Origin: Isosphaeraceae bacterium EP7
GTDB lineage: Bacteria; Planctomycetota; Planctomycetia; Isosphaerales; Isosphaeraceae
Direction: 5' to 3'
Assembly: GCA_038400315.1 (NCBI GenBank)
Contig: CP151667.1
Location: 3,917,174-3,981,173, forward strand
DNA: 64,000 bases
Position numbers and translations under genes: made by a program. The stretch's first letter is position 1; every line of letters starts with the position of its first letter. Below are positions 23,383 through 52,500 of the stretch, piece by piece. Below the pieces are notes generated by a model that saw only the letters and a program-made list of their open reading frames with translations, searched no databases and was not told the DNA's origin.

Positions 23383-23457
23383 CGGGGCGTAGCGCAGTTT
23401 GGCTAGCGCGCTAGACTGGGGGTCTAGAGGTCGTGGGTTCAAATCCCGCCGCCCCGA
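23383..23457 (+). tRNA. tRNA-Pro (GGG)
   Basis: The acceptor CGGGGCG pairs with CGCCCCG. The D-arm is GCGC...GCGC, the anticodon stem CTAGA/TCTAG with loop CTGGGGG gives GGG at 23418-23420, and the T-arm is GTGGG/CCCGC around TTCAAAT. The discriminator is A. CCA is not encoded, unlike in the tRNA-Gly gene. Confidence 0.96.
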
Positions 23458-25115: not shown

Positions 25116-25883
25116 TTGACGAAGTCGAGGAGGCGCGATGTCGAGCAGGTGGCGGAGACCGGCGGGCGGGGTGTTCGCCCGAAGTTCGTAGAGCTCCGCG
25201 CTTGGTACGAACTGGGCAGGCTGAATCCGGCCGGGCCCGGAGAGCTCGCCGCGGGGGCGCGTAAACTCGGGCTCGCGCGCGAGATCGGCCCGGCGACGCT
25301 GCGCAAGGCGAGGCAGTTTGCTCGCACCTATTCGGCCTCCGAGTTGGAGGCATTGCTGGCCCAACGCACCGGGCGCGGCAAGGCCCTGCGCTGGTGCCAC
25401 GTCCGCGAGCTCGTCGCCGTCGAGGACCGCGGGGTCCGGGCCGAACTGGAGCGTCAGGTCGCCTCCCGGGGCTGGTCGGTCCGCGAGCTCCGCGAAGAGA
25501 TCCGCCGGGCCAGGGGGGGCGGACGGGGGTCCGAGGGGGGACGCAAGCATCGCCGGCCGGCGTCCGCCGAGGCCGGCCTCGCGCGGGTCATCGAGACGTG
25601 CGAGGCCTGGCTCCGGTTCCGGGAGACGGTCGTGGCAGTCGAGAAGGTCGGGCTGCTCGCCATGCTAGGCGAGGCCGCGGTGGCCGATCCCGGCGAGTCG
25701 CTCCTCGATCGGATGAGGTCCGCCGAGAGGGTACTCGCGAAAGTCGCCTTCGAGGCACGCACCCTAGGGGGCGTGATTGAGGCTCATCGGACTTCGGCCG
25801 AGGCCTCGATCGTGAAGCGAGCCGCCTCGGAAAAGGCGGAGGCTAGGCGACGGAAGAGGGCCGCCGGAGCCGGGAAGTCTTGA
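25116..25883 (+). CDS. DUF1016 N-terminal-like protein
   Basis: A 255-residue basic protein. The only start with a ribosome-binding site is TTG at 25116, preceded by GGGAG. Residues about 20-130 resemble the winged-helix-like N-terminal domain of DUF1016/YhcG nucleases: a helix LRKARQFARTYSASELEALL, then LRWCHVRELVAVEDRGVRAE and the hallmark GWSVRELREEI. The C-terminal nuclease domain of DUF1016 is absent. A long helical, Arg/Ala-rich tail follows. DNA binding is plausible but inferred. It opens the DUF1257/DUF2997/AAA cassette, separated from it by about 140 bases. Confidence 0.55.
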   Translation: MTKSRRRDVEQVAETGGRGVRPKFVELRAWYELGRLNPAGPGELAAGARKLGLAREIGPATLRKARQFARTYSASELEALLAQRTGRGKALRWCHVRELVAVEDRGVRAELERQVASRGWSVRELREEIRRARGGGRGSEGGRKHRRPASAEAGLARVIETCEAWLRFRETVVAVEKVGLLAMLGEAAVADPGESLLDRMRSAERVLAKVAFEARTLGGVIEAHRTSAEASIVKRAASEKAEARRRKRAAGAGKS

Positions 25884-26025
25884 CGGACGATCACCGCCCA
25901 GTGCAGTCCGGGATCGAGGCCGCCGCTTAAATTCGGGGCGTTTCCCGTCATCAATCGGTGAAGCCGGATGCCTAGCATCCGACTCTCCCCGATCCCGATG
26001 TGAGACCACCCCGGAGCACCGCCGC

Positions 26026-26394
26026 ATGAGCCACGTCGTCACCGTCCAGGCCGAGGTCCGCGACCCGGTCGCCGTCGCCGCCTCCTGCCGCAGGCTCGGG
26101 CTGCCCGAGCCCGTCCGCGGCACCGCCCACCTGTTCGAGCGTCCCGCCGCCGGGCTGCTCGTCCGCCTGCCCGGCTGGCTCTACCCCTTGGTCGTCCAAC
26201 CCGAGGACGGGCGGCTGGAGTACGACCACTACGAGGGCCGCTGGGGCGACCCCGCCCAGCTCGGCCGCTTCCTCCAGGCCTACGCCCTGGAGAAGGCCAC
26301 CCTGGAGGCACGCAAACGCGGCCACTCCGTGCTCGAGACCCACCTGGCCGACAGCTCCGTCCGGCTGTCCATCCGCGTGGGGGCCGGCTCATGA
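26026..26394 (+). CDS. DUF1257 (Ycf35-like) protein
   Basis: A 122-residue protein beginning MSHVVTVQAEVRD, the standard opening of DUF1257. It has the conserved EYDHYEGRWGDPAQLGRFLQ block and the AYALEKATLEARKRGHSVLE helix. The stop overlaps the start of the DUF2997 gene by four bases (ATGA), so translation is probably coupled. The pair is found next to a Ycf46-like AAA ATPase in cyanobacteria, planctomycetes and some phages. The joint function is unknown. Confidence 0.85.
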   Translation: MSHVVTVQAEVRDPVAVAASCRRLGLPEPVRGTAHLFERPAAGLLVRLPGWLYPLVVQPEDGRLEYDHYEGRWGDPAQLGRFLQAYALEKATLEARKRGHSVLETHLADSSVRLSIRVGAGS

Positions 26395-26585
26395 CCCGCT
26401 ACATCGAGGTCACCGTCGACCCCCTCGGGCGCACGACGGTGCGCACCGCGGGCTTCGCCGGGCCGTCCTGCCGCGAGGCCTCGCGGTTCGTCGAGGCGGC
26501 CCTGGGCACGGCCACCGCCGAGGTGCTCACCGCCGAATTCCACCGGACGCAGCAGGCCGACCAGCCGCTGCGGCAGTCCAGCTGA
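26391..26585 (+). CDS. DUF2997 protein
   Basis: A 64-residue protein (MTRYIEVTVDPLGRTTVRTA, then GFAGPSCREASRFVEAALGT) matching the short DUF2997 family in length and in the opening beta-hairpin (I-x-V-x-V-x-P-x-G) with the GPSC.EAS.F.E..LG helix. Its ATG overlaps the DUF1257 stop. It is most likely a subunit or cofactor of the neighbouring AAA protein, by context only. Confidence 0.82.
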   Translation: MTRYIEVTVDPLGRTTVRTAGFAGPSCREASRFVEAALGTATAEVLTAEFHRTQQADQPLRQSS

Positions 26586-26647
26586 ACTCGGCCACGTCCC
26601 ACCCTCGCCTCAATACCCCCATCTCCACATCACCGAGGAGTCTTTCC

Positions 26648-28144
26648 ATGACGCTCTCCGAGCGCCTGTCCGAGTACGTGCGCGCCTGCTTCACCGGCCT
26701 CTGGGTCCGCTCCCGCGAGCACGCCGACGCCCTGGCCGAGATCGCCGCGATGTGCCGCGACAACGGCTGGTCCCTGGCCACCTGGGACGTCGAGCATGGG
26801 CTGAGCGTCGCCGGCCAGCCCGACGCACCGGCCGGCATGGCCGCCGATCCCCTGGCCGCCGTCCGCGCGATGGCCGCCCTGGCCACCCCCGGCGGCACGG
26901 CGCTGCTGGTGCTCGTCAACTTCCACCGCTTCCTCGCCTCCGCCGAGGTCGCCCAGGCCCTCGACGCCCAGGTCCACGCCGGCAGGCAGTCCCGCACCTT
27001 CGCCGTCATCCTGGCGCCGGTCGTCCAGCTGCCCGCCGAGCTGGAGACGCTCTTCGCCGTCGTCGACCACGAGCTGCCCGGCCGCGACCAGCTGGGGGCC
27101 ATCGCCCGCGGGGTGGCCACCGAGCCCGGCGAGCTGCCCGACGGCGACGGCCTGGCCGCCGTGCTCGACGCGGCGGCGGGGCTGACGCGGCTGGAGGCGG
27201 AGAACGCCTTCAGCCTGTCGCTGGTCCGCCACGGCCGCCTGGCCCCCGAGGTCCTCTGGGAGCTGAAGGCCGCCTCGCTGGGGGCCTCGGGCCTGCTGTC
27301 GCTGCACCGCGGCGAGGGGTCGTTCGCCGACCTGGGCGGCCTGGACGCCCTGAAGCAGTTCTGCTCGCGGTCGCTGCGGCGGGGCGTGGGCCACGCGGAG
27401 GCCCTGCCGCGGGGCGTGCTGCTGCTGGGGGTGCCGGGCACGGGCAAGAGCGCCTTCGCCCGCGCCCTGGGCAACGAGACCGGCCGGCCGACGCTGACCC
27501 TCGACGTCGGGTCGCTGATGGGCTCGCTCGTCGGCCAGACCGAGGCGCAGGTGCGTCAGGCGTTGCAGGTCGCCGACGCGATGGCGCCGTGCATCCTCTT
27601 CTGCGACGAGCTGGAGAAGGGGCTGGCCGGCGTCGGCTCCGGCTCGCGCTCCGACGGCGGCGTCTCGGCGCGGCTCTTCGGCACGCTGCTGACCTGGATG
27701 GCCGACCGCAGGAGCGACGTCTACTTCGTCGGCACGGCCAACGACATCTCGGCGCTGCCGCCGGAGTTCGCCCGCGCCGAGCGGCTCGACGCGGTCTACT
27801 TCCTCGACCTGCCCGGGGCCGCCGAGAAGGAGGCGATCTGGCGGATGTACGCGGGCCGCTTCGGCCTCGACCCCGGGCAGCCGCGGCCCTCCGACCGCGA
27901 CTGGACCGGGGCGGAGATCCGGGCGTGCTGCCGCCTGGCGGCGTTGCTGGAGGTGCCGCTGGCCGAGGCGGCGGCCAGCATCGTGCCGGTGGCCACCACC
28001 GCGGGCGAGTCGATCGAGCGGCTGCGGTCCTGGGCCGCCGGGCGCTGCCTGTCCGCCGACCGCCCCGGCCTCTACACCCGGGCCATCGCGGCCCCGGGTC
28101 GCACCGGCCGCGGCATCCGCCGCGCCGACCCGTCGTCCAACTGA
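26648..28144 (+). CDS. Ycf46-like AAA+ ATPase
   Basis: A 498-residue ATPase. Residues 1-230 form the N-terminal domain seen in Ycf46 proteins (an RLSEYVRACFTGLWVRSREH opening, a degenerate NTPase-like region). The AAA+ core starts with GVPGTGKS, where K267 binds ATP phosphate. Walker B follows in ILFCDELEKGL, and the second-region features include VYFVGTANDISALPPEFARA. The C-terminal lid is about residues 390-480. Cyanobacterial Ycf46 has been linked to photosynthetic regulation, but the family also occurs in non-photosynthetic bacteria and phages. It is the motor of this small cassette, whose role is not known. Confidence 0.87.
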   Translation: MTLSERLSEYVRACFTGLWVRSREHADALAEIAAMCRDNGWSLATWDVEHGLSVAGQPDAPAGMAADPLAAVRAMAALATPGGTALLVLVNFHRFLASAEVAQALDAQVHAGRQSRTFAVILAPVVQLPAELETLFAVVDHELPGRDQLGAIARGVATEPGELPDGDGLAAVLDAAAGLTRLEAENAFSLSLVRHGRLAPEVLWELKAASLGASGLLSLHRGEGSFADLGGLDALKQFCSRSLRRGVGHAEALPRGVLLLGVPGTGKSAFARALGNETGRPTLTLDVGSLMGSLVGQTEAQVRQALQVADAMAPCILFCDELEKGLAGVGSGSRSDGGVSARLFGTLLTWMADRRSDVYFVGTANDISALPPEFARAERLDAVYFLDLPGAAEKEAIWRMYAGRFGLDPGQPRPSDRDWTGAEIRACCRLAALLEVPLAEAAASIVPVATTAGESIERLRSWAAGRCLSADRPGLYTRAIAAPGRTGRGIRRADPSSN

Positions 28145-28261
28145 CCCCGAAGTCCCTTCCTTCAGGACGGGTCCCGTTCGATCGCATCAACCCCACCCCC
28201 GCCACCCGGGGCGCTCGGCCCGCACGCCGATTGCCCCTCCACATCACCAGGACAAGCACCC

Positions 28262-29242
28262 ATGACCACGATGATCGACGATGTCAGGACCCAAGCACGG
28301 CCATCGGCCGCCGCCCCCGCGGCCGAGCGGCTGCGCGCCACCATGGCCGCCGCCCGCGTCTCGTTCACCTGGATGGGCACCCGCAAGGCCCTCTCCGCCG
28401 ACCAGAACGCACGCGCCGCGGAGGCCTTCGGCGCCGAGGGACGGTCGCTGTCCGCCGGCAAGAAGCTCCTCGACACCGGCCACGAGGCCTTCCGCGCCGT
28501 CACCGCCATCCGCGGCCGCATCGACGCCTACTGGAAGGGCGTCTCGCTGCCGTTCCCCGAGCCCGGCGTGCGGCTCGTCCGCCACGCCGACCTGGAGGAC
28601 TTCGCCGCCGCGATGGCCGCCTCCAGAGCCGAGCTCGACGCCGCGGTGGCCGCCCTCGACCGCCGCTACGCCGGCCTGGTCGCCGCCGCCCGGTTGCGGC
28701 TGGGCACGCTCTTCGACGCGGCCGACTACCCGGCCTCGCTGGCCGGCCTGTTCGCCGTGGAGTGGTCGTTCCCCTCCGTCGAGCCGCCGGAGTACCTCGC
28801 CGGGCTCTGCCCGGGGCTCTACGAGGCCGAGCGGGCCCGCGCCTCGGCGCGGTTCGAGGAGGCGGTGCAGCTGGCCGAGCGGGCCTTCGCCGAGGAGTTC
28901 GCCCGCCTGGTGGAGCACCTCTGCGAGCGGCTGGAGGGCCGCGACGGGTCGGGCCAACCCAAGGTCTTCCGCGACTCGGCGGTGGAGGGCCTGTCGGCGT
29001 TCTTCGGCCGATTCCGGGCGCTGAATGTCAGCTCCGACGCCCAGCTGGAGGAGCTCGTCGCCCGGGCCCAGCGGCTCGTCGGCGGCGTCTCGGCGCAGGA
29101 CCTGCGCGACGGCGACGGCCTGCGTCGGCGCGTGGCCGAGGGCCTGGGGCGGGTGGGCCAGGGCCTCGACGGGCTGCTGGCGGACCGGCCGCGGCGGCGG
29201 ATCGTCCGGTCGACCGCGTCCTCGGCGACGGGGGAGGCGTGA
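28262..29242 (+). CDS. Conserved helical protein of the AAA cassette
   Basis: A 326-residue mostly helical protein without membrane segments. Conserved-looking blocks are WMGTRKALSADQNARAAEAF, SLSAGKKLLDTGHEAFRAVT, SLPFPEPGVRLVR, and PKVFRDSAVEGLSAFFGRFR. It has the look of a family that recurs beside Ycf46-like ATPases in planctomycetes, with some similarity in type to phage DUF3150 proteins, which I cannot confirm. Its stop overlaps the next start (TGATG), indicating coupled translation. No function is assigned. Confidence 0.7.
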   Translation: MTTMIDDVRTQARPSAAAPAAERLRATMAAARVSFTWMGTRKALSADQNARAAEAFGAEGRSLSAGKKLLDTGHEAFRAVTAIRGRIDAYWKGVSLPFPEPGVRLVRHADLEDFAAAMAASRAELDAAVAALDRRYAGLVAAARLRLGTLFDAADYPASLAGLFAVEWSFPSVEPPEYLAGLCPGLYEAERARASARFEEAVQLAERAFAEEFARLVEHLCERLEGRDGSGQPKVFRDSAVEGLSAFFGRFRALNVSSDAQLEELVARAQRLVGGVSAQDLRDGDGLRRRVAEGLGRVGQGLDGLLADRPRRRIVRSTASSATGEA

Positions 29243-29487
29243 TGGACCTGATCATCTCGCCCGGGGGAATCATCCGGGCCGTGTACGCCGAGGCCATTCC
29301 CCTGGAGGCCCTGGGCCCCGTGCAGATCCGCAGGGCGAGCCATGTCGAGCCCGACGGCGCGGGTCGGTGGTGGGCCGACCTGGGCCCGGCCGCCGGCCCG
29401 GTGCTCGGGCCGTTCGCGACTCGCAGTGAGGCGCTTCGCGCCGAACTCGACTGGCTCGGCCGCCACTGGCCGCCGGGTCCGAGGTAG
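29242..29487 (+). CDS. Small conserved protein of the AAA cassette
   Basis: An 81-residue protein starting one base inside the preceding stop. It has the pattern ISPGGIIRAVYAEAIPLEAL, then RRASHVEPDGAGRWWADLGP and LGPFATRSEALRAELDWL. It reads as a compact alpha/beta domain that recurs in planctomycete genomes in the same setting. No catalytic motif is visible. Confidence 0.7.
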   Translation: MDLIISPGGIIRAVYAEAIPLEALGPVQIRRASHVEPDGAGRWWADLGPAAGPVLGPFATRSEALRAELDWLGRHWPPGPR

Positions 29488-29538
29488 CCCCCTGCGTTGA
29501 TGGCGACCCGAAATCCACCGACAAATTGGAGGCCGATG

Positions 29539-29742
29539 ATGCAGCGAAGAGCGGCCGTTCCACCCCGCCCGGACGGCCCGTGCCGGATTGTCCCGTGCCC
29601 GATGTGCGGCTCGTCGCGCGAGCTGCCCCTCGATGCGTCGGGCCGTCCGGCCCTGGCCGAGTGCATCCCCTGCGACCTGCTCTTCGAGCCCCGGGTCCCG
29701 CCGGACGCGAGTCCGGGCCGGGGGCGGCGTCCGGGTGCTTAA
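29539..29742 (+). CDS. Small zinc-ribbon-like protein
   Basis: A 67-residue protein with two CxxC knuckles (CPMCGSS and CIPC, about 20 residues apart), expected to bind one zinc ion. GGAGG lies six bases before the ATG at 29539. Two further in-frame ATGs upstream have worse spacing. It is probably a nucleic-acid- or protein-binding accessory of the cassette. Confidence 0.55.
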   Translation: MQRRAAVPPRPDGPCRIVPCPMCGSSRELPLDASGRPALAECIPCDLLFEPRVPPDASPGRGRRPGA

Positions 29743-29924
29743 CGTTAATCGGCGATCGTCCCGCCCCGTGCGAGGACACTCGCCCCTCCTCCCGAGGAGG
29801 ATCCCATCGATCCCGACCCCCTCGATCGGCCCGGGCCGGCTTGCCGATCGATGGGCGGCGGCAACCCCCGGACGGCTCCGGCCATATCCGACCCCGACAC
29901 CCCCCTGCGGAGGACCGATGAGCG

Positions 29925-30527
29925 ATGAGTGCGCGGATGAAGCTGAACGTGGCCTACCTCAACGGCTGCCTGCTCATGGCGGTCGCGGCCGGCGCCCTGG
30001 CCGGGAGCCCGGCCATCGGCCTGCTGTCGTTCCTGGCCCTCGCGGCCGGCGGCCTGGCCACCGGCGCCATCCGGCCGCGCCGACGTCGCCCCTGGCGTGA
30101 TGGCCGGCCTCCCCGCCGCGGCACTTGCCGCGGCGGGGAGGCCGCCGCCTTTCTTTTAGCCATGCCCCGTCCTCTGCTGCACCGGGGGAGAGTTGCCGGG
30201 CGACATCGAAGGGCCCTCATGATGGCCGAGCGGTCGAACAGCGACGGGTTCAACGCGAACGACCTGCTCCTCAAGGGCTCCGCCGACTGGCTCTCGGGGC
30301 AGAAAGTGCCGGACATCGACAGGCTCGTTCCGCGGGTGGAAGAAGCGACGCGGGCGTACCGGGCGTGCAGGAGCGGCTCGACGCCTCCCATGAGGCTTCT
30401 GGTCAGTCTTGCGACGACGGCCAAGGCGAGCCGGGGAAGCCGAAAGGTGGCCGATCGAATCCATCCGGCTTGCCGGAAGCCTGAGCGTCGGATGGGCCGA
30501 ATCGTCGTGCGAGTTCTGGGTCCTTGA
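29925..30527 (+). CDS. Small membrane protein; frame runs on through a terminator
   Basis: The first about 50 residues (MSARMKLNVAYLNGCLLMAV followed by AAGALAGSPAIGLLSFLALA) form one or two membrane segments ending in a basic IRPRRRR motif, which looks like a complete small protein of the cassette. The frame then stays open to 30527, but positions 30106-30157 hold a very strong terminator hairpin. A TGA at 30098-30100 is in another frame. The likely reading is a frameshift near 30090 that removed the natural stop, or a read-through ORF of no meaning. GGAGG precedes the start by 11 bases. Confidence 0.45.
   Translation: MSARMKLNVAYLNGCLLMAVAAGALAGSPAIGLLSFLALAAGGLATGAIRPRRRRPWRDGRPPRRGTCRGGEAAAFLLAMPRPLLHRGRVAGRHRRALMMAERSNSDGFNANDLLLKGSADWLSGQKVPDIDRLVPRVEEATRAYRACRSGSTPPMRLLVSLATTAKASRGSRKVADRIHPACRKPERRMGRIVVRVLGP
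30106..30157 (+). terminator. Strong Rho-independent terminator
   Basis: A 17-base arm (30106-30122) and its exact complement (30127-30143) form a stem closed by the tetraloop ACTT. GCCGCC and then TTTCTTTT follow. It ends the DUF1257/DUF2997/AAA cassette. It lies inside an open reading frame, which is unusual. Confidence 0.85.
30222..30484 (+). pseudogene. Possible frameshifted small gene
   Basis: Reading from the ATG at 30222 gives MAERSNSDGFNANDLLLKGS, then ADWLSGQKVPDIDRLVPRVE and EATRAYRAC. A switch of frame near 30373 continues as QERLDASHEASGQSCDDGQG and ends in PEA at a TGA. The two halves together resemble one soluble, helical protein of about 87 residues. The spacing of its helices is reminiscent of exodeoxyribonuclease VII small subunits, but the similarity is too weak to name it. 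It may be a decayed gene or a sequencing error. Confidence 0.3.
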
Positions 30528-30606: not shown

Positions 30607-33302
30607 ATGCCGAACGTCCCCGCGGGCCCGATCCCGGAATCCCTGTCGGCCGCCCTCCTGGATTTCCCCTGGATCCAGGCGATCTCCGCCGCGGAAGCCT
30701 CGCTCTGCCTGATCGGTCTGGCGGTCGTGATCGGTGTCTTCGTCTGGGCGTTCAGGACCCAGCCCATCCCCTCGCCCCCTTCATCCGGGCGATCGGGCGG
30801 CGCGGAAGGACCGGATCGCTTCGTCTGGCCGCGGCCGCGCGAAGAGGATTTGTCGCCGTCGCCGAGTTCTCTCCGAGATCCGGGCTTCGTTGGCGAGTCG
30901 AGTCCACCCTCCTCTCGCGGTGATTCCGGCCGGACGAGCGTCGACGGCCGTGGGGAGGATCTGCCGGGCCGGGTCGACTCCGGGCTTCCTCGGACGCGTC
31001 CGGGTTCCCCGATTTCTCCCGATCCGGACGACTTCGTCGTGCGGGCCGAGCGGCCATCGCGTCAATGGGCTCCATCGACCCCGATCGAGCTCTCGGAGAC
31101 GGAGGATGCCTTCGACTCTCCCGTCCCCGCGCCGCCGCCGCCGACATCGCCGAACGTCATGTCGATCAGCCTCGACCCGTCGCGTCTCCTCTCGGGCCTG
31201 ACTCGCCACGTCCCCGTTTCGCCCCCGCAGATCCTCACCTGGCGAGGCAGGGGAGAGACGATCCACGTCGGCCGTTACGCGATCCGAGATCCGCTCGTGT
31301 ATACGTCCGGAGGCAGGGGGAAGCACGACGAAGCGTCCTGCATCGACCTTGCCCTGAAGGTCGGCAAGCCCGTGGTCGAGCCGCGGGGGAGCCTCGGATA
31401 CTGGCCGAAATACGCCCACATCACCGCCGATCAGCGGGCCAATTACCTCCAGTGGCTCGCCGGCGGCAGGTCGGGGCCTCTCGACGACATCGGCTATGCA
31501 TTCCTCTTCTTCTACGGCCTGGAGCGGCGATTGCTCGTCGACGGGGAGGACCTCAGCCTCGTCGCCAAGGAGGCCGTCCGATTGCTGGAGACCTACACAT
31601 TCTCCGGGTCGTTCGACGGCTACCTGAGCCGCTTCCTCTCCTACTCGCTTGCCAAGGTCGACATCGGCACGCTCAAGGAGGCCTGGTTCCGGGCCGTGTT
31701 CGAGAGGACCCGATCCCGGAAGGACGAGCAGCACCTCGCGGTCGGGCTCGCCTGGCTGTTCAAGCAGCAGCGGCCGCTCCCCTCCGCCTGGGCCTTCCGG
31801 CTCGCCAAGCTCGACCCCCGGTCGCCGCGGAGCGTGGTCCTGGACCGACTGCCCGACCAGTTCGGCTTCCTCTTCAGCAAACGCTACGCCGAGCAGTTCG
31901 GCGACGGCCTGAAGCTGCGCGTCGCCAAGCGGGATCGCGAGGTCTCCTATCAACTGGCCAGCCCGTCCCTGCACGAGATCCTCGGCGCCCGCCGCGGCCT
32001 GGAGCCGGTCCGCGTGCCCAACGTCCTGGGGATCCAGAGCCAGTTCGCGCCGCTTGCGAAGATCTGGACGGCGTGCATCGAGGAGCTGAAGCCGCTGAGC
32101 CGGGTCATGGCGAGGGGAGTCGAGGTTGCGACTCGCGCCGCGTACGACGCCCTGCCGGAGGGCCTCAAGTCGGACCCGAGCATCCGGATAGGCTGCGGTG
32201 GGAGGCGATCGCCTCGAGTCATGCAGGGGAGGACGGGACGGTCATCGTCGAGGTCGGTCCGCTCGCGGACATCCACGGGATCGAGCCGCGGCCGAGGCTG
32301 ACGGCCAAGCAGAGCGAGTCGCTCGCCGCCACGGCACACGAGGTCGGCTTCGTCATCGAGCCCGACTTCCGGGTCGACGGCAGGCCCTACGGCCGGGACG
32401 ACCTCGTGGCACTCTTCCGGCCCGAGGAGGAGCCCGCACTGCCGGCCGATGGCAAATACGCCGCCGCGGCCCTGATGCTCGAGCTGGGCATGTCCATCGC
32501 CGCCGCCGACGGCGAGATCGAGGAGGATGAGGTGGACCACATCGCGAGCTTCCTGGAGTCCCAGTTCCTGCTCGACCCGCCCGATGTCCGAAGGCTGGAG
32601 GCGCTCAAGCGGGTCTTCCTAGGTCGGCACCCGTCGATCGGCGGGATCGGCAAGAGGCTCAAGGCCACCCTGGACGCAGGCCAGCTCGAGTCGGTCGGCG
32701 AATTCCTCGTCGGCGTCGCGGCCTCCAACGGAGCGATCGACAAGAAGGAAGTCGCCGCCCTCCGCTCCGCCTATCGGGCCCTTGGCATCGCGGCGGGTGT
32801 CCTCGATCGCACGCTCGAGGAATACAGCAGGAGCCTCAAGGAGCCGGTGGAGGTCGTGCCCGCGACGGGGCCGTCGGCCGGCGGGGAGGCGATCCCGCCC
32901 AGGCCGTCGACCGCGGCGAAGGCGGGATTCATGCTCGACCCGTCGGTCCTCGAACGACTCATGCGGGAGACGGAGCAAGTCGCGAAGCTCCTGGCCGAGG
33001 CGATCCCCGGGGACGAGCCCGACGACCCTCCTCCGGCGCCGATCGCCACCATTCCACCCGCGGCAGACCCGCGTCTCGACGGGCTCGAGGCCCGGCACGC
33101 ATCGGCTCTCTCCGAACTGATTGGCCGCCCTTCCTGGACGCCCGACGAGTTCGAGGAGGTCGTCCGTCGCCATTCCCTCATGCCCTCGGGGGCCATGGAC
33201 GGGATCAACGATTGGGCCTATGATCGCTTCGATGACCCCATCCTCGAGGAGGACGGCGGCCGTCTCCTGGTCCGCATCGGACTCCTGGCGGGGGAAAAAT
33301 GA
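30607..33302 (+). CDS. TerB_N/TerB_C domain protein, interrupted by a frameshift
   Basis: Translation from 30607 gives one membrane segment (residues about 29-50), a Pro/Ser-rich linker, then a TerB_N domain (about 200-400: WRGRGETIHVGRYAIRDPLV, LGYWPKYAHITADQRANYLQ, GYAFLFFYGLERRLL). That frame ends at 32301. The neighbouring frame, entered near 32190, continues with RLRWEAIASSHAGEDG, a TerB-like helical domain (AAAALMLELGMSIAAADGEI) and a TerB_C domain (FEEVVRRHSLMPSGAMDGIN) to 33302. One missing base explains both halves. TerB_N/TerB_C proteins belong to Ter stress and defence modules and often accompany ATPases and helicases. The stop overlaps the next start (ATGA). The protein is probably membrane-anchored with a cytoplasmic body. 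Confidence 0.8.
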
Positions 33303-34627
33303 GCAGCCCGATCAAGCCTCGCGAACGTGACGCCATCCTGACATCGCTCCGGGCGGGGGTCGTCCCGCGCATCGGCCTGCGTCACCTGCAGGTGGGGCGG
33401 CGGGACGAGGTGGCGGCCGTCCTGGACGACCTGGGGCGGGTCGAGCAGGGCGGGGCCTCGGTCCGCTTCGTCATCGGCAAGTACGGGGCCGGGAAGAGCT
33501 TCTTCCTCAACCTCGCCCGGGCCGTCGCCCTCGAGAGGAAGTTCGTCGTCGCCCAGGCCGACGTCACCACCGAGCGGCGCATCCACGGCTCGGGGGGGCA
33601 GGCCCGCGGCCTCTACGCCGAGCTGATGCGGAGCCTCTCGACCCGCGCGAAGCCCGAGGGCGGCGCGATGCCGAATATCGTCGAGCGGTGGGTCGCCGAT
33701 GTCGACCACGAATGCCGCTCTGCGGGCGGCGCCGACCCGGATGTCGCGCGGGCCATCGAGGACCGCCTGAAGCCCCTGCAGGAGCTCGTCAGCGGCTACG
33801 ACTTCGCCGCCGTCGTCGCCAAGTACCTCCGAGGCTTCCAGTCGCACGACGAGTCGCTGATGGCCTCGTCGCTGCGTTGGCTCCGGGCCGAGTACCCGAC
33901 GAAGACCGAGGCGCGGGCCGAACTCGGCGTCCGCACGATCATCGACGACGCCCACTTCTACGATCAGCTGAAGCTCTTCGCCGCGTTCACCCGCCTCGCG
34001 GGATTCGCGGGCCTGCTGGTCAACATCGATGAGATGGGGGTCCTCTCGCACCGCCTCAACAATGCCCAGGCGCGGAACGCCAACTACGAGGCGATCCTCC
34101 GCATCGTCAACGACTGCCTGCAGGGCAACGTGTCGGGGATCGGCTTCCTGTTCGGCGGCACCGACACCTTCCTCGAGGACCGACGGCGGGGCATGGCGAG
34201 CTACGAAGCCCTCGGGACCCGGCTCGCGGCGAACGCCTTCGCACGCGACGGCCTGAAGGACTTCTCCGGGCCGGTGATCAGGCTGCCGAACCTGGCCCCC
34301 GAGGACCTGTTCGTCCTGCTCCACAACATCCGGGACGTCTTCTCGCTCAGCGACCCGGCCAGGCACCTCATCGACGAGGAGGGGATCAAGGCCTTCATGG
34401 CCCATTGCGAGACGACCCTCGGCGCGGACTTCTTCCTGACGCCCCGCGATGCGGTGAAGGCCTTCGTCGGCCTGCTCTCCGTCCTCGAGCAGAATCCCGG
34501 GGCCGACTGGCGGCCGCTGCTCTCGGGCACCGCCGTCGAGCGGACGCCCGACCCGGAGGTCGAGCCGGTCGCGACGGATGTCGGGCGACCGAAGGGCGAC
34601 GACGACCTGGCGACCTTCCAACTCTAG
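33299..34627 (+). CDS. BrxD-like ATP-binding protein (DUF2791-type P-loop)
   Basis: A 442-residue ATPase with Walker A GKYGAGKS (K66) and Walker B ending VNIDE (D244-E245). Other family-like blocks are PRERDAILTSLRAGVVPRIG at the N-terminus, FVVAQADVTTERRIHG, and FLFGGTDTFLEDRRRGMASY. This is the architecture of BrxD, the ATPase of type 2 (Pgl) BREX systems, where it sits before the helicase BrxHI exactly as here. No pglX, pglZ, brxC or pglW is present in the window, so this is a BREX-like pair rather than a BREX locus. It is translationally coupled to the TerB gene. Confidence 0.82.
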   Translation: MSSPIKPRERDAILTSLRAGVVPRIGLRHLQVGRRDEVAAVLDDLGRVEQGGASVRFVIGKYGAGKSFFLNLARAVALERKFVVAQADVTTERRIHGSGGQARGLYAELMRSLSTRAKPEGGAMPNIVERWVADVDHECRSAGGADPDVARAIEDRLKPLQELVSGYDFAAVVAKYLRGFQSHDESLMASSLRWLRAEYPTKTEARAELGVRTIIDDAHFYDQLKLFAAFTRLAGFAGLLVNIDEMGVLSHRLNNAQARNANYEAILRIVNDCLQGNVSGIGFLFGGTDTFLEDRRRGMASYEALGTRLAANAFARDGLKDFSGPVIRLPNLAPEDLFVLLHNIRDVFSLSDPARHLIDEEGIKAFMAHCETTLGADFFLTPRDAVKAFVGLLSVLEQNPGADWRPLLSGTAVERTPDPEVEPVATDVGRPKGDDDLATFQL

Positions 34628-34631
34628 GGCC

Positions 34632-36926
34632 ATGAGCAACCAAGACGTCCCCTCAGGCAAGCCGGCGGCGTTCTCGCGACTGCACCCAAAGGTCCAGGAG
34701 TCGCTCTACCGGATGCGCTGGACGAAACTCCGGCAGATCCAGGTGGAGGCCATCCACGAGATGCTCGACGGCGACGGCGACCTCGTCATCTCCGCCAACA
34801 CCGCCGCCGGCAAGACCGAGGCGGCCTTCCTGCCGATCCTCTCGCGGATCGTCGACGACCATCTCGGCGGCGTCAGGGCCGTCTACGCGGGCCCGCTCAA
34901 GGCCCTCATCAACGACCAGTTCCTGAGGCTCGAGCGGCTCTGCGAGCTGGCCGAGGTCCCGGTCCACAAGTGGCACGGCGACGTCGGCAAGTCGGCACGG
35001 AAGCGGCTCCTCGAGCGGCCGTCGGGGATCCTCCTGATCACCCCGGAGTCGATCGAGTCGCTGTTCATCAACCACCCGCATCGACTGGCGACGCTCTTCC
35101 CCAGGCTCGAGTTCTTCGTCATCGACGAGGCCCATTCGTTCCTGGGCAATGAGCGGGGGGCGCACCTGCGGAGCCTGATGACCCGCCTGGGCGAGAAGAG
35201 CGGGGTGCCGGTGCGGCGGATCGGACTGTCCGCGACCCTCGGCGACACCGCCGCCGCGATGCGGTGGCTGAGGCCGAACGATCCCGCGAGGGTCCGGCTC
35301 CTGGTCGACAAAACGCGGAAGGCCATCCGCCTGAAGCTGTCGGGATACCTGCGTCCGCTCAAGGAAAACGCGGGACTCTCACCCGCCGGTCCGATGGACG
35401 AGTCACTCCCCGTCGACGACCCCCTCCTGGCCGACGTCTTCGAGGCCTTCCGGGGGAAGTCGGCCCTAATCTTCGCGAATCGCAAGGATCGCATCGAATA
35501 CTACGCGGACCTCGCCGGCCGAACGGCCGAGCGTCGCGGCCTGCCGAACCCCTTCCGCGTCCACCACGGGTCGCTGTCCAAGGGGGAGCGGGAGGAGACC
35601 GAGGATGCCCTCCGCGCGGGCAAGTCCGTCGCCACCTTCTGCTCCAGCACGCTCGAGATGGGCATCGACGTCGGCAGCGTCAAATCGGTCGGACAGATCG
35701 GGCCCCCCTGGTCGGTCGGCTCGCTGTCCCAGCGGCTCGGGCGCAGCGGCCGCGGGGACGGCGAATCGTCGGAGATCCGGATCTACGTCGAGGACGACTT
35801 CCCGGGCCCGGATGCGTCGCTCCTGGACCGCATCTTCCCCGACCTCCTCCAATCGATCGCGATGACGGAGCTCATGCTCGCCGGGTGGTGCGAGCCGCCC
35901 GAGGTGGATCGCCTCCACCTGTCCACCCTCGTGCAGCAGATCATGAGCACGATCGCCGAGTCGGGGGGCGGCAGGGCCGATAGCCTCCATGCCTCGCTCA
36001 TCGCGAGCGGCGCCTTCCCGGCCGTGGACGGGCCGACGTTCGTCCGGGTCCTGAGGAGCATGGGGAAGGCCGACCTAATCGAGCAGACGCCCGAGGGGCT
36101 CCTGATCCTGGGCATCGCCGGCGAGCGGATCGTCCGCAGCCGCGACTTCTACATGGCCTTCACCGTCCCCGAGGATTACCGGGTCATCGACCGGGGGCGG
36201 CACGTCGGCAACATCAGCCCGATCATGGACCCGCGGATCGACGGTTACATCATCCTCGCCGGCCGACGCTGGATCGTCCTGCAAGTCGACCGGGATCGGA
36301 AGGAGATCCTCGTCGAGCGGTCGCCCGGCGGCAAGGCGCCGTCCTTCTCGGGAGGGGGAGGGCAGGACATCCACCCCAGGGTCCGCGAGGAGATGAGGTC
36401 GCTCCTGTTCCGGGACGACGTCCCGTCGTATCTCGACCCGTCCGCCAGGGAGATGCTCGAGAGGGCCCGATCTTCGGCGAGGGAAGCCGGACTCGACCAT
36501 CGCGCGTTCGTCGAGGACGGCCCGGACATCGTCTGGTTCACCTGGACCGGCTCGCGGATCCACCGCACCCTGATCGGCCTGGGGTGCCACATCCTGGGCC
36601 TTAAGATCGGGGAGGACGACGACGTCGCGATGACGTTCTCGAAGTCGACCGAGCATGACATCCGGGCAGCCTACGCGGGACTCATGCACGAGTCACCCGA
36701 CGTCGAGCAGCTGGCGTCGAAGTATCCGGGGCGTGCCATCGAAAAGTATGAACCATTCCTCTCGGACGATCTCCAGTCGCTCGTCTTCGCGAGCCATTGC
36801 CTCGACATGGGAGGGGCCCTCCGCCTGATTGCATCGCTCGGCGAGCCGGAGGGATCGGGAAAGGGGATCGGCCAAATTGTCGGGAATCCGAGCAGGTTAC
36901 GCGAGCTTCCCGCGCCGCCAGGATAG
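34632..36926 (+). CDS. BrxHI/Lhr-like superfamily II DEAH-box helicase
   Basis: A 764-residue helicase. Motif I is SANTAAGKTEAAF with K61-T62, motif II is DEAH (D165 to H168), motif III is GLSATLGD, and motif VI is SQRLGRSGRG. The C-terminal region after about residue 430 is the Lhr-type winged-helix and accessory domain. It begins four bases after the BrxD-like gene, as brxHI follows brxD in type 2 BREX. A role in DNA translocation or unwinding during defence against foreign DNA is inferred from this context. Confidence 0.88.
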   Translation: MSNQDVPSGKPAAFSRLHPKVQESLYRMRWTKLRQIQVEAIHEMLDGDGDLVISANTAAGKTEAAFLPILSRIVDDHLGGVRAVYAGPLKALINDQFLRLERLCELAEVPVHKWHGDVGKSARKRLLERPSGILLITPESIESLFINHPHRLATLFPRLEFFVIDEAHSFLGNERGAHLRSLMTRLGEKSGVPVRRIGLSATLGDTAAAMRWLRPNDPARVRLLVDKTRKAIRLKLSGYLRPLKENAGLSPAGPMDESLPVDDPLLADVFEAFRGKSALIFANRKDRIEYYADLAGRTAERRGLPNPFRVHHGSLSKGEREETEDALRAGKSVATFCSSTLEMGIDVGSVKSVGQIGPPWSVGSLSQRLGRSGRGDGESSEIRIYVEDDFPGPDASLLDRIFPDLLQSIAMTELMLAGWCEPPEVDRLHLSTLVQQIMSTIAESGGGRADSLHASLIASGAFPAVDGPTFVRVLRSMGKADLIEQTPEGLLILGIAGERIVRSRDFYMAFTVPEDYRVIDRGRHVGNISPIMDPRIDGYIILAGRRWIVLQVDRDRKEILVERSPGGKAPSFSGGGGQDIHPRVREEMRSLLFRDDVPSYLDPSAREMLERARSSAREAGLDHRAFVEDGPDIVWFTWTGSRIHRTLIGLGCHILGLKIGEDDDVAMTFSKSTEHDIRAAYAGLMHESPDVEQLASKYPGRAIEKYEPFLSDDLQSLVFASHCLDMGGALRLIASLGEPEGSGKGIGQIVGNPSRLRELPAPPG

Positions 36927-44022: not shown

Positions 44023-45231
44023 TCAACCTATGATCCGCGAGATTTTGGGCAAGCCGATCGACGAAACTCGGGGCATGCCCCCGAAATTGGCAGGGCTCAC
44101 TTCGCCCCGGGCGTCCGAGTTCAGAGGAGGGCGTCGGGGTTGAATCTGCGTACCCGATTGATGAGCTGATCGATCTTCCCCCCGGTCCAGGCCGGCACGA
44201 CGGACGATCTCCACGGCCCTCGATCGGTGATCGCCCCTCGGAAGATCGGCAGGGTTGATGCCGAGCTCTTGCGCGATCTGGGCGAGTTGCCCCTCGGTCA
44301 GGTCGGCCACGGCATCGATCAGAAGGCGTGGATCGGGCGCGTGAAGAAGCGGAAGCGATCGGGATCCTGCCTGGGGAATATTCGCCGGCTGCGGGACGGG
44401 GCCCGCCCAGTCGAGTCCCTTGGGCAAGAGCTCCCCGCCCGCGTAGAACGCGAGCGGAAAGTTAATCGTCAGCTGGGAGGTGTCCAGGATTGGGATTTGG
44501 TCACCCCGCGCACGCTTCGGCACCGACTGGCTAATCCAATGAAGGACGTCGAGGAAATAGGCCCGGCCGTCTCGTTGCCGACACCCGTACCCGGCGAGCG
44601 CCTCAAGGAGAGCCTCGGTAAAGACGCTGTAGTGCTTGCCGAACCAGGACTTCTGGTCCCTTCCGCAGCTCGAAATAAAGGCTCGCCCGTTCATGCCCCC
44701 TAGCTCGGAATAGTCGGGCAGAAAAGGGCCGTCGACGAAGGAGGAATCACGCGTGCTTCCCTTCGAGGCCTGCCCGACGGAGGAGATCCCCCCTGCGTGG
44801 CAGCAATCGAGCAGGACGAGCACGCCTTTCGCCGGGATCCTCCGGATTTTCTCGCAGAACTCGGCGTCCGTGATGGCGGTGCGCGCGAAATCGTCGGGAT
44901 CGAATCCCTCCGGCAATAGGTAGTACTGACCGACGTCCGCCCGCTTGCCCCCGTGACCCGAGTAGTAGACGATCGCGATCGACTCCTCATCCCTGCAGCA
45001 ACGCTCCGCGAGGTCGTCCAGCGCAGCGAGGATGTTCTCCCGCGTGGGACGGTCTGTCGCCGATACCGCGCCTCCGACCAGCACCCGGACCTGACCGGCC
45101 GGATAGCCGCATCTCCGGGAATCCATCAGGAGGTTCGCCACCGCCTTCGCATCGCCGATCGTCACCGGCAGATCGTCACCGACCCCGATAATGACTGCGT
45201 GCCCTTGCATGAAACATCGAGGGCTTGCCAT
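44023..45231 (-). CDS. Caspase-like peptidase with frameshifted C-terminal EAD
   Basis: 402 residues from the ATG at 45231. It has a peptidase C14 domain (about 5-245) with the catalytic dyad intact: H93 in YYSGHGGKR and C144 in LLDCCHAGG. Strand 1 is QGHAVIIGVGDDLPVTIGDA. After a linker comes the EAD (RLLIDAVADLTEGQLAQIAQ, then ELGINPADLPRGDH), nearly identical to that of the Roc GTPase. Five bases are missing at 44187/44188 relative to the other copy, so the last helix is read out of frame and the stop moves from 44121 to 44023. EADs recruit effectors by like-with-like contacts, which makes this the predicted effector of the GTPase. The gene lies between the kinase-like gene and the membrane-GTPase gene. 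Confidence 0.88.
   Translation of the reverse strand: MASPRCFMQGHAVIIGVGDDLPVTIGDAKAVANLLMDSRRCGYPAGQVRVLVGGAVSATDRPTRENILAALDDLAERCCRDEESIAIVYYSGHGGKRADVGQYYLLPEGFDPDDFARTAITDAEFCEKIRRIPAKGVLVLLDCCHAGGISSVGQASKGSTRDSSFVDGPFLPDYSELGGMNGRAFISSCGRDQKSWFGKHYSVFTEALLEALAGYGCRQRDGRAYFLDVLHWISQSVPKRARGDQIPILDTSQLTINFPLAFYAGGELLPKGLDWAGPVPQPANIPQAGSRSLPLLHAPDPRLLIDAVADLTEGQLAQIAQELGINPADLPRGDHRSRAVEIVRRAGLDRGEDRSAHQSGTQIQPRRPPLNSDARGEVSPANFGGMPRVSSIGLPKISRIIG
44111..44330 (-). repeat. EAD-coding direct repeat, copy 2
   Basis: 220 bases in the caspase gene matching 39323-39547. The copies differ by scattered substitutions and a 5-base gap that breaks the reading frame here. Confidence 0.85.
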
Positions 45232-45390
45232 GGGATGTCCACCGTGACCGGAGAAAAAGGCCACCAGACGCCCTCGGGGACGCCGGGCGGAGATGTACGA
45301 GGCTTCGATGCACCGAGGGTGACGCTTGCCCGGGGCTGCCGATACGCGAGATGGTCGTGCGAGACCGGCCCGTGGGTCGTAGCCGTGGCA

Positions 45391-49586: not shown

Positions 49587-52500
49587 ATGAGTCGGAAAAT
49601 CTTCGCGCTGCTGGTAGGCATCGATAAATACACGAGTCCGATCCCCAAGCTTGACGGTTGCGTCAACGATATCGAAGCTTTCGGGGCCTACCTCTCGGGG
49701 CGGACCGATCAAAATGAGGACGTCTCGTTAGATCTGCGTCAACTTAATAATGATAAGGCCACGCGAGCTGCCGTGATCGACGGATTCCGCGACCACTTGG
49801 GAAAGGCAAAGAAAGGCGATATCGCACTCTTCTACTACAGCGGCCACGGCTCGCGCGAGCAGGCTCCCGAAGAGTTCTGGAAGATAGAGCCGGATCACAT
49901 GGACGAGACCATCGTCCTCTTCGACTCCCGCGATCCCGATAAGTACGACCTAGCCGACAAGGAGCTGGCTCGGTTGATCGAGGAGGTCGCCGATAACGGC
50001 CCGCACGTCGCCGTGATCCTCGATTGCTGCCACTCCGGATCGGGCACCCGAGACCTCGGCACGGTCGCCCGCCTCGCCCCGACCGACCGTCGCCCGAGGC
50101 CCATCTCGACGTTCCTCGCGGGCGCGGGCGAGTCGAAGACCATCAAAGGGGGCGACTCGGGCTGGGGGGTGTCGGGCGGGCGGCATGTCCTCCTCGCGGC
50201 CTGCAGATCCGACGAACTGGCAAAGGAATGTTCCGGCAACGGCAAGCATCGAGGGGCGTTCTCGTTCTCCCTCTGCGAGGCTCTCAAGAGCGCGGCAGGG
50301 ACACCGACCTATCGCGACCTATTCTCCCGAGCCAAGTCGCTGGTCTCGGGCCAGGTAAAGGACCAGTCGCCCCAGTTGGAAGCCACCCGCGCCGACGACC
50401 TCGACGCCGTCTTTCTGGACGGGGCATTTCGGCCCTCGCCGGCTACTTTCACCGCGAAGTTCGCCAAGGGCCGCTGGGTAATCAACGGCGGCGAGGCGAA
50501 CGGCATCCCGCCTCTCGCCGGGGGTGAGACGACTCAGCTAGCGTTCTTCCACTTCGACGCCCCCGAGGCCGACCTCCTTGCCATGGACAAGGCCGTCGCG
50601 ACGGCCAGGGTTGACGCCGTCCTCCCGGCTTCCTGTCTGCTCACGATAGAAGACGGGAAAAGCCTCGCCGCCTCGGAGACATTCAAGGCCATTATCATCA
50701 GCCTGCCGACGCCCCGGACCGGCGTCGTCCTCATAGGCGACACGGCAGGGGTCACACTCATCCGCGATGCAATCTCCAAATCATCGGTTGCCAAGAAACC
50801 CTCCCCGTTCATCCGCGAGGCGTCGGACGGAGAGGCTCCCGAGTTCCGGCTGACGGCCAGCGACGGCCGGTTCGTCATCACGCGGCCGGAGGACGAAAGA
50901 CCCCTCGTAGCCGAGATCGAGGGGATCGATGAGTCAGGCGTCGAACTCGCGGTCAGACGGCTCGAACACATGGCGAGGTGGACGCAAACCTTGCGGCTTG
51001 CCAATTCTGCCAGCTCGATCGGGCCGGATGACGTCAAGCTCAGCTTCATAATTGACGGCGATGAGTGGAAGGGCTCAGACATCCGGATCGAATACCGGCC
51101 CGACGCTGGCGGCACGCCGGTCGCGCCAACGTTCCAAGTCAGCATGACCAATCTGACGAAAAAAACCTTGTACTGCGGTCTGCTCGACCTCACCCAACGC
51201 TACAGGATCTCGGCCGAGATGCTCCCCGCGGGCTCAGTCAAGCTAGAAGCGGGCCAGACCGTGTGGGCTAATGATGGCCAGCCGATCACCGCCAGCGTCC
51301 CCGACGAGGTCTACGAGAACGGGGTCATCGAGTACAAGGATTGGCTCAAACTGATCGTCTGCACCCAGGATTTCGACCCTCGCCTCCTCGAACTCCCGAC
51401 TCTCGACACGCCCCGGTTCCGAGATGAACAAACCAGAGCCCTGTCCCGCAACGGGAGCTTGAACCAGCTGATGGAGAAGATCGCCACGCGTGAACTGCTC
51501 CCCGCCCCCGCTGCGCAGATCGACGACTGGCAGGCGACGAGCGTCGGGTTCACCACCGTCCGCCCCCTGGCGTCCACGCCCTTGCCTGGGACCGGCAAGG
51601 CTGCCAGCCTTGCCGGAGGCGTGACCCTCGATGGCCACTCCGGCCTCAAGGCCAACGCGAAGCTGACGACGACGAGCCTGTCGACTCGCGACCTGGGCAG
51701 CCTCACTCTGCCCCGGATCCTACTCGACGACCCGGCCGTCGTCCGACCCTGGACCTTCACAGCTAGTCGGGGAACCGACCCTGGCCTAGGCGTCTTGGAA
51801 CTGACCGAGGTGGAAAACCCCGAGGTCATAACCCCGGAGAACCCACTTCGGGTCAATGTTCCCCTAGCGATCGGGGCGGAAGAGCACGTGCTCCCCATCG
51901 CCTTTGACGGCGAATTCTTCCTCCCGCTGGGCGGGGTCGAGCGGCGGGACGCGGGCTCAACAGTGATTTCCATCGATCGCCTGCCACCGCCGCTGGCCGA
52001 CGGCCGATCGCTCGGCGGCGCGATCAAGATCTTTTTTCAGAAGATCGTGGGCGAGACGGTCGGGATCGAAACCCCGTACCCAGTCTTCGGCGTCGCCAAC
52101 GTGGACCCCGATGCCGCCGTCGAAGCGATCCGCGATCCCGATGAGGTCCGCGCCCGGGTCCAGAGGGCCAGCCGGATCGTACTCTTCGTCCACGGGATCA
52201 TCGGCGAGACGTCGACGATGGTCCCCAGCGTTCGACTTGCTAAGCTGCCTGGCCAGACCCCGGTGGCCAGCCTTTACGACGTGGTCCTCACCTACGACTA
52301 CGAGAACCTCAACACCACCATCGCAGACAACGGCCGCCTGCTCAAGCAGCGGCTGGAGGCGTGCGGTATCACGCCGGGGAACGGCCGGGTGATCGACATC
52401 GTGGCTCACTCGATGGGCGGCCTGGTCTCTCGCTGGTTCATAGAGAAGGAAGGGGGCAATCAGGTCGTCCGGAGGCTCATCATGCTGGGCACTCCTAACG

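What the first reader, a model, noticed from the sequence alone, without database searches (positions are those of the whole stretch)
25116..30157. DUF1257/DUF2997/Ycf46-like AAA cassette downstream of tRNA-Pro
Seven or so small genes, several with overlapping starts and stops, end at a very strong terminator. The same gene set occurs in phages and cyanobacteria. Codon usage here is extremely GC-rich compared with the flanks. Position after a tRNA suggests a mobile or formerly mobile unit, though I found no second att copy.
Basis: partly seen in the sequence, partly recalled or inferred. Interest (0 to 1): 0.5.

Follow-up and report, generated by a model that had tools for sequence, protein, structure and literature searches.

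The report
Modular AAA cassette in defence island
A seven-gene planctomycete cassette built around a protein-remodelling motor sits next to a known anti-phage system in a 98 kb element at a tRNA gene; in related bacteria the same core carries either a ubiquitin-like tagging module or a DNA-clamp module, which suggests an undescribed conflict system, though no function has been tested.

Summary
DUF1257-like, DUF2997, AAA, 326-aa, 81-aa, Zn-ribbon-like and small membrane genes (window 26026 to about 30157) end at a strong terminator. The DUF1016_N-like gene at 25116 is not part of the set.

The mobile hunch is right for the surroundings. The tRNA-Pro 3' half recurs exactly (45 bp) 98.4 kb away, 58 kb past the window end, with a tyrosine recombinase about 35 bp from it. 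No relative kept the flanks, so an empty site could not be tested. The cassette is cargo of this island, 0.45 kb from a Shango anti-phage system.

New here: in related planctomycetes the core is patchy and often multicopy. A ubiquitin-like module (Ubl, E2-like with Cys-rich tail, JAB, E1) or a divergent DNA sliding clamp follows it: 11 and 20 of 41 loci, never both. In 23 cassette-bearing genomes both genes lie only in cassettes (11 of 11 E2-like, 19 of 19 clamps); modules changed at least four times on the AAA tree. DISARM DrmD lies nearby far more often than chance.

I read it as a Cdc48-like segregase core with exchangeable targeting modules, acting in conflict with mobile elements. The window copy has neither module. 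Biochemistry is inferred.

The parts
23383..23457 (+). tRNA-Pro (GGG); its 3' 45 bp (23413-23457) form one end (attL) of the island
   Evidence: ARAGORN; exact 45-bp repeat at G000:C1:4039040-4039084, not a tRNA gene
26026..26394 (+). DUF1257-like (Ycf35-like) small protein, 122 aa, first cassette gene
   Evidence: no Pfam hit itself, but 20 of the 27 members of its alignment match PF06868 at E<=0.1, best 6.2e-26; AF2 model pLDDT 90; conserved position
26391..26585 (+). DUF2997 protein, 64 aa, overlaps previous gene
   Evidence: PF11211 E 1.1e-12
26648..28144 (+). AAA ATPase, 498 aa, Ycf46/Cdc48-like; GVPGTGKS, CILFCDE and GTAND present (motif names recalled)
   Evidence: PF00004 E 2.3e-25; phrog_8638 E 1.5e-80; best PDB matches Cdc48/p97; motifs
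28262..29242 (+). 326-aa helical protein, DUF3150-like
   Evidence: 30% identity, E 1e-17, to annotated DUF3150 protein of a Ca. Manganitrophus plasmid; alignment A1; low-confidence helical model
29242..29487 (+). 81-aa cassette protein (RASHVEP motif)
   Evidence: conserved after the 326-aa gene; on plasmids only in 3 Ca. Manganitrophus records, each beside the DUF3150-like match
29536..29742 (+). Zn-ribbon-like small protein (c10/c6 position)
   Evidence: matches cassette c10 profile, 32 bits over half of it; relatives
29925..30092 (+). 56-aa small membrane protein; last gene of clamp-type cassettes; the frame runs on past the terminator
   Evidence: homologues at the 3' end of cassettes: L068 E 1.7e-13, L066, L067, L062, L072, L079 and others; in two Ubl-type loci (L085, L090) weak matches lie between Ubl and E2-like genes
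30105..30157 (+). intrinsic terminator closing the cassette
   Evidence: fold -52 kcal/mol, z -6.6; pattern scan
30607..36926 (+). neighbour, not part: Shango anti-phage system (SngA split over two frames, SngB, SngC)
   Evidence: PADLOC SngA 8.6e-26 and 2.4e-35, SngB 4.9e-161, SngC 2.4e-231

Best explanation
The cassette is the core of a modular protein-remodelling system that lives in defence islands. Shown: a conserved gene order DUF1257, DUF2997, AAA, 326-aa (DUF3150-like), 81-aa, small c6/c10 protein, in clamp-type copies often closed by a small membrane protein; a downstream slot that holds either a complete ubiquitin-like conjugation module or a divergent beta-clamp module (often with c7 and, in some, a PD-(D/E)XK nuclease); changes between these modules on the AAA tree; patchy, multicopy distribution; several broken copies; close association with DrmD and, in the window, Shango; and, in the window, cargo status in a tRNA-Pro island. 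Inferred: the Cdc48-like AAA hexamer pulls apart or unfolds target proteins; DUF1257, DUF2997 and the helical 326-aa protein are its adaptors; the exchangeable module marks the targets, either by a covalent Ubl tag (removed by JAB) or by a DNA-bound clamp, probably on replication or other nucleoprotein complexes of invading elements. The window copy is an intact core with neither module: it works with its own small proteins or host factors, or it is a recently orphaned core.
For: Gene maps of 74 loci and the window. Module counts in the 41 of 67 loci with a 326-aa gene at least half covered: Ubl 11, clamp 20, both 0, neither 10 (two of these keep c7), Fisher p 1.6e-4, not corrected for relatedness. 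Whole-genome searches of 23 genomes chosen for having the cassette: E2-like gene 11 places, all in cassettes; divergent clamp 19 strong places, all in cassettes, while ten other places, presumably ordinary DnaN, match at about 45 bits or less. At least 4 changes between modules on the AAA tree, quick method. JAMM motif in 11 of 11 JAB rows and the GVGA(I/V)GRQ site in 12 of 12 E1 rows; E2-like protein with invariant HPH and Cys, then 12 invariant and 8 nearly invariant Cys; clamp by PDB profile, 7rzm E 6.4e-8. AAA closest to Cdc48/p97 among solved structures; GxGK[ST] in 65 of 65 AAA rows, in 17 of them as SPPGCGKS. DrmD: 8 strong hits in 11 genomes, 5 within 13 kb of a cassette, 0.12 expected. 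Shango beside the window copy. Island ends. A Bacillus plasmid joins ThiF and Prok-E2_D (both over their Pfam cut-offs, PRTRC models below theirs) with AAA, DUF1257, DUF2997 within 12 kb.
Against: No experiment; PADLOC has no model hitting the 326-aa, 81-aa, DUF1257-like, DUF2997, clamp or E2-like proteins. The window genome has no clamp or E2-like match (its Ubl, JAB and E1 genes were not searched for genome-wide), so its own copy says nothing about targeting. The E2 label rests on motifs and context; no Pfam model and no E2 structure matched. Cyanobacteria and plastids keep Ycf35/Ycf46, which speaks for a housekeeping role of the wider family. One phage locus has the AAA-DUF1257-DUF2997 genes within 3 kb of DnaB, so the core may serve elements rather than fight them. 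Module exclusivity partly follows lineage: all Isosphaeraceae loci with a clamp or Ubl module have the clamp type.
Confidence: 0.5

Rival explanations
1. Element-serving replication or assembly factor. The core is a mobile-element protein chaperone (helping replication initiation, clamp handling or virion and plasmid functions), and the bacterial copies are cargo or remnants of such elements.
For: Of four phage loci viewed, Rhizobium L338C has AAA, DUF1257 and DUF2997, with DnaB and DNA polymerase I genes within 5 kb, Aeromonas HJ05 has all three, Rhodobacter RcMenchie AAA and DUF2997, Mycobacterium Firecracker only the AAA; two plasmid copies have toprim and helicase genes within 8 kb, and an AAA on a Treponema plasmid lies among phage-baseplate-like genes; the window island seems to have its own polymerase- and primase-like genes (read from translations only); clamp and nuclease partners fit replication.
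Against: 326-aa and 81-aa proteins gave no phage match; copies in one-contig genomes (G238, G024, G181, G069, G152) lie on the chromosome-sized contig; Ubl-E2-JAB-E1 and DrmD links fit conflict better.
Confidence: 0.25
2. Housekeeping chaperone for a metal or redox cofactor, as may hold for Ycf46/Ycf35 in cyanobacteria: the AAA core loads or repairs an iron-sulfur or radical enzyme.
For: DUF2997-Ycf35-ferredoxin cluster in Synechocystis (passage); radical-SAM/4Fe-4S proteins near the AAA in Paenarthrobacter, Bacillus and Treponema plasmids.
Against: None of the recurrent planctomycete neighbour families that I scanned is a ferredoxin or radical-SAM protein, but these were not searched for by profile there; patchy multicopy distribution in defence islands is unlike housekeeping.
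Confidence: 0.15
3. Decayed orphan: the window copy lost its clamp module and is no longer functional, kept only by hitch-hiking in the island.
For: The small membrane gene, elsewhere often placed after clamp or c7, lies 182 bp after the Zn-ribbon gene in the window; no clamp or E2-like gene anywhere in the genome; other copies are visibly broken (L063, L065, L066, L070, L081, L090); neighbouring SngA is split; the membrane frame lacks a stop before the terminator.
Against: All six other frames are intact and AAA motifs present; loci of much the same form exist elsewhere (L066, L067, and L069 without c10), so the short form may be stable, though L066 is itself broken.
Confidence: 0.3

Closest known systems
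Cyanobacterial/plastid Ycf46, Ycf35 (DUF1257), DUF2997 set
   Same: AAA of the same broad family, DUF1257 and DUF2997 partners; DUF2997-Ycf35-fed7 cluster in Synechocystis; all three on a Geminocystis plasmid
   Different: no 326-aa, 81-aa, Ubl or clamp partner in the passages and the one plasmid region seen; the Synechocystis set has a ferredoxin
Bacterial ubiquitin-like systems (operon types of Iyer 2006; BilABCD; PRTRC)
   Same: relatives of the window cassette carry Ubl, E2-like, JAB and E1 genes; Iyer type 6d has the same four kinds (passages); ThiF and Prok-E2_D near AAA on a Bacillus plasmid
   Different: the Iyer 2006 main text holds no 'AAA'; here the module is one of two exchangeable add-ons to an AAA core and its E2-like protein has a Cys-rich tail; the window copy has none of it
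Cdc48/p97 segregase
   Same: AAA domain most like Cdc48/p97 among solved structures
   Different: best stretches cover only residues 224-442; one AAA domain, small bacterial partners
DUF3150 proteins
   Same: 326-aa protein aligns over about three quarters with an annotated DUF3150 protein
   Different: window protein itself does not reach the Pfam model
DISARM and Shango
   Same: neighbours in defence islands
   Different: no cassette protein matches their PADLOC models

Membership tests
DUF2997 (PF11211) | profile match over gathering score | tested here: met
   48 bits, cut-off 24.1
DUF1257/Ycf35 (PF06868) | profile match over gathering score | tested here: inconclusive
   window protein none; 20 of 27 alignment members match at E<=0.1
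Ycf46-type AAA | AAA module with Walker A, Walker B and sensor residues | tested here: met
   orthology with cyanobacterial Ycf46 itself was not tested
DUF3150 (PF11348) | profile match | tested here: inconclusive
   window none; 1 of 32 aligned members matches, E 1e-8; tblastn link E 1e-17
Bacterial Ubl conjugation system | Ubl, E1, E2 (and JAB) in the operon | tested here: not met
   absent from the window locus; E2-like absent from G000; present in 11 of 41 related loci
PRTRC system | PRTRC ThiF and protein B models | tested here: not met
   tested on relatives, as the window has no such gene: planctomycete E1 (L083) only 33.8 bits against cut-off 144.75, E2-like no match
tRNA-integrated genomic island | direct repeat of tRNA 3' end at both ends | tested here: met
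   45 bp exact
tRNA-integrated genomic island | integrase beside one end | tested here: met
   tyrosine recombinase PF00589 E 2.5e-17, gene 120426-121832 of the extended coordinates
tRNA-integrated genomic island | empty site in a relative | tested here: inconclusive
   no conserved flanks at tRNA-Pro in 20 relatives
known PADLOC defence system | model matches of the system's core genes | tested here: not met
   window AAA hits only AAA-domain stretches of IetA, TRIP13 and PDC-S01 models; 326-aa, 81-aa, DUF1257-like, DUF2997 none

The most novel reading that the evidence does not exclude
A bacterial Cdc48-like segregase core with interchangeable target-marking modules, a covalent ubiquitin-like tag in some copies and a DNA sliding clamp in others, used against mobile elements. 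It would be a bacterial parallel to eukaryotic ubiquitin- and PCNA-directed p97 extraction from chromatin.
Probability: 0.25. Interest if true: 0.88.

Novelty: new variant of a known kind. Interest (0 to 1): 0.62.

Why it matters
It gives DUF1257, DUF2997 and DUF3150-like proteins, which under those names have almost no literature in the held library, a testable common setting. It joins a p97-like motor to full Ubl cascades in bacteria, which bears on where ubiquitin-p97 coupling came from. The swap between Ubl and clamp modules on one core makes the idea of a shared targeting logic directly testable. The associations with DrmD and Shango mark it as a candidate defence system that the PADLOC version used here does not hold.

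Tried and rejected
Cassette itself as a mobile unit: no att or recombinase of its own was found; rejected in favour of island cargo. Phage gene after the AAA as the 326-aa counterpart: hhalign probability 0.1%, rejected. High GC as a sign of import: rejected, GC excess is general. Empty-site test: no synteny. Structure of the 326-aa protein: pLDDT 51, not used for a fold search. DUF1257 model: no PDB match at E<=0.001; one viral match, A0A7S5REL3 at 5.2e-05, unnamed. IMG/VR scan with the AAA: two candidate stretches, neither confirmed. c7, E2-like and clamp on plasmids: no match. An early 'TM' profile drifted and labelled 81-aa genes as TM; redone. The strict Walker A pattern was in 48 of 65 AAA rows; the other 17 read SPPGCGKS. 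The DrmD threshold (299 bits) was chosen after seeing the list; at 200 bits or more it is 5 of 11 near a cassette, and the model also matches in all 14 control genomes at E<=0.001. The label Cas1 for neighbours of L063, L069 and L079 is my reading of the sequence, not a profile match.
Full report
WHAT IS THERE. The window holds seven cassette genes on the + strand between 26026 and the terminator at about 30105-30157: a DUF1257-like protein, DUF2997, an AAA ATPase of 498 aa, a 326-aa protein, an 81-aa protein, a Zn-ribbon-like protein and a small membrane protein. DUF2997 is over its Pfam cut-off. The AAA matches PHROG family 8638 along nearly its whole length and, among solved structures, Cdc48/p97 best. 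The terminator is far more stable than shuffles. GC is 74.8% against about 65% on both sides. The DUF1016_N-like gene at 25116 is not part of the set: none of the 60 relative loci searched holds a homologue.

ISLAND. ARAGORN places tRNA-Pro(GGG) at 23383-23457. Its 3' end recurs once more in the genome, as an exact 45-bp repeat at G000:C1:4039040-4039084, which is not a tRNA gene. The two copies span 98.4 kb; the far one lies 58 kb beyond the window. A 468-aa tyrosine recombinase ends the island on the right, about 35 bp from the repeat, followed inward by small HTH-like, repressor-like, primase-like and polymerase-like genes (my reading of the translations; only the recombinase was tested by a profile). 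Twenty relatives share no flank genes at tRNA-Pro apart from scattered weaker matches, so no empty site could be shown. The cassette starts 2.6 kb inside the left end, and 0.45 kb after its terminator comes a Shango system, SngA (split over two frames), SngB and SngC, then an HNH protein and two caspase-like proteins.

DISTRIBUTION. In the order (45 genomes) a listed match above 50% identity to the AAA, fragments at contig ends included, is in 20. Of the other 25, three (G308, G326, G328) have near-full-length matches at 32-35% identity, two none, the rest weaker matches mostly to the AAA domain. At least five genomes hold two to four copies. Within genus g226 four genomes have it and two lack it. 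In 294 genomes of the phylum, 44 have DUF2997 and one has seven copies. I fetched 60 regions, plus 10 from the search for related loci, four of which are the same places (L126, L127, L128, L135). The core order DUF1257, DUF2997, AAA, 326-aa, 81-aa holds in Isosphaeraceae and in families f2 and f3, with exceptions such as L096 and L099; in other planctomycetes the order is mostly AAA, DUF1257, DUF2997, with the 81-aa gene behind it in three loci (L108, L112, L117) and no 326-aa gene found.

MODULES. Behind the core comes one of two modules. Type A: Ubl (ThiS-like, PF02597 E 3.2e-6), an E2-like protein with an invariant HPH and Cys followed by 12 invariant and 8 nearly invariant Cys, a JAB-like protein with a full JAMM motif (Pfam Prok-JAB only E 0.006, PADLOC JAB 6.1e-6) and a ThiF/E1-like protein (E 1e-24). 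The E2 label rests on these motifs and on context; no Pfam model and no E2 structure matched. Type B: a divergent beta sliding clamp (PDB profile E 6.4e-8), often c7, and in a few loci a PD-(D/E)XK nuclease. Of 67 loci, 41 have a 326-aa gene at least half covered: 11 are type A, 20 type B, none both, 10 neither (p 1.6e-4 by Fisher, relatedness not removed). c7 and the nuclease are not exclusive to type B (L130, L132; L080 and L092 have c7 without a clamp). Searching 23 whole genomes, chosen because they hold the cassette, the E2-like gene occurs at 11 places, all in cassettes (two of them mapped), and the divergent clamp at 19, all in cassettes; genomes without the cassette were not searched. 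On the AAA tree (quick method, 65 rows) the A and B labels need at least 4 changes, and one genome, G238, holds six A and one B copies. So the modules belong to the core but are exchanged.

THE WINDOW COPY. It has neither module, and neither the clamp nor the E2-like gene is anywhere in its genome. The small membrane protein, which in relatives follows the clamp or c7 (L062, L068, L072, L073, L079, L089, L094, L095), comes here 182 bp after the Zn-ribbon gene, much as in L066 and L067. In two Ubl-type loci weak matches to it lie between Ubl and E2-like genes (L085, L090). The simplest reading is a loss of the middle module; a stable short form is possible.

DEFENCE LINK. DrmD of DISARM matches at 299 bits or more at 8 places in 11 genomes; 5 lie within 13 kb of a cassette where 0.12 are expected (threshold set after seeing the list, 5 of 11 at 200 bits or more; genomes chosen for having DUF2997). 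A Cas1-like gene, by my reading, lies near three Isosphaeraceae copies. Several copies are broken: clamp in pieces (L063, L070, L081), AAA split (L066, L081, L090), 326-aa split (L065); sequencing errors are not excluded.

WIDER FAMILY. The 326-aa protein is related to DUF3150 (E 1e-17), although the window protein itself misses the Pfam model. A Ca. Manganitrophus plasmid carries AAA, DUF1257, DUF2997, DUF3150 and an 81-aa homologue in a row. Of four phage loci viewed, two have AAA, DUF1257 and DUF2997, one AAA and DUF2997, one the AAA alone; the gene after the AAA in three of them is unrelated to the 326-aa one. A Bacillus plasmid has ThiF and Prok-E2_D, PRTRC-like but below the PRTRC cut-offs, upstream of AAA, DUF1257, DUF2997, an independent hint of a Ubl link. 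The 725 plasmids matched by the AAA are mostly AAA-domain matches: 6 cover 80% or more of it. Paenarthrobacter, Bacillus and Treponema plasmids have radical-SAM-like 4Fe-4S proteins nearby, and Synechocystis has DUF2997-ycf35-fed7 (passage), which keeps a cofactor role open.

HOW IT MAY WORK. Inference from parts: the AAA ring remodels proteins, the small partners adapt it, and the exchangeable module marks the target by a Ubl tag or a DNA clamp. Defence against mobile elements is the likeliest purpose from the neighbours. None of this is tested.

PRINT. In the held PMC library, DUF1257 or DUF2997 appear in 3 papers, DUF3150 in none; Ycf46/Ycf35 appear in 48, of which 20 were listed, mostly plastid genome papers. 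I saw passages only of PMC4284462, PMC5940233, PMC7824862, PMC1779556 and PMC11354881. Iyer 2006 (PMC1779556) lists Ubl operons without 'AAA' in its main text. The listings of searches showed no report of this cassette; only listings were seen, and subscription papers are mostly not covered. Functions of Shango, DISARM, JAMM and p97 are from general knowledge.

Noticed in passing
L084:5613-8947 and L081/L135 (DUF1257 region): A large serine recombinase gene sits in the DUF1257 gene: a partial copy, then a complete DUF1257 copy just before the recombinase, and a short C-terminal remnant after it, as if the element brings a replacement gene. L067 has the partial plus complete DUF1257 without a recombinase.
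   Followed up: partly
window 30607-33302: SngA of the neighbouring Shango system is split over two reading frames; SngB and SngC are each one open frame.
   Followed up: partly
window 44023-45264 and 49587-53030: Two caspase-like genes in the same island (PADLOC caspase), with transposase-like genes around.
   Followed up: no
island coordinates about 100935-108951 (beyond the window): A MoxR-like AAA gene followed by large unknown genes, perhaps another conflict system; read from translations only.
   Followed up: no
L078: A serine recombinase gene follows the AAA where the 326-aa gene would be expected.
   Followed up: no
window 30249-30374: Downstream part of the read-through frame resembles an Acinetobacter-type exonuclease VII small subunit model (39.4 bits, cut-off 40).
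   Followed up: no
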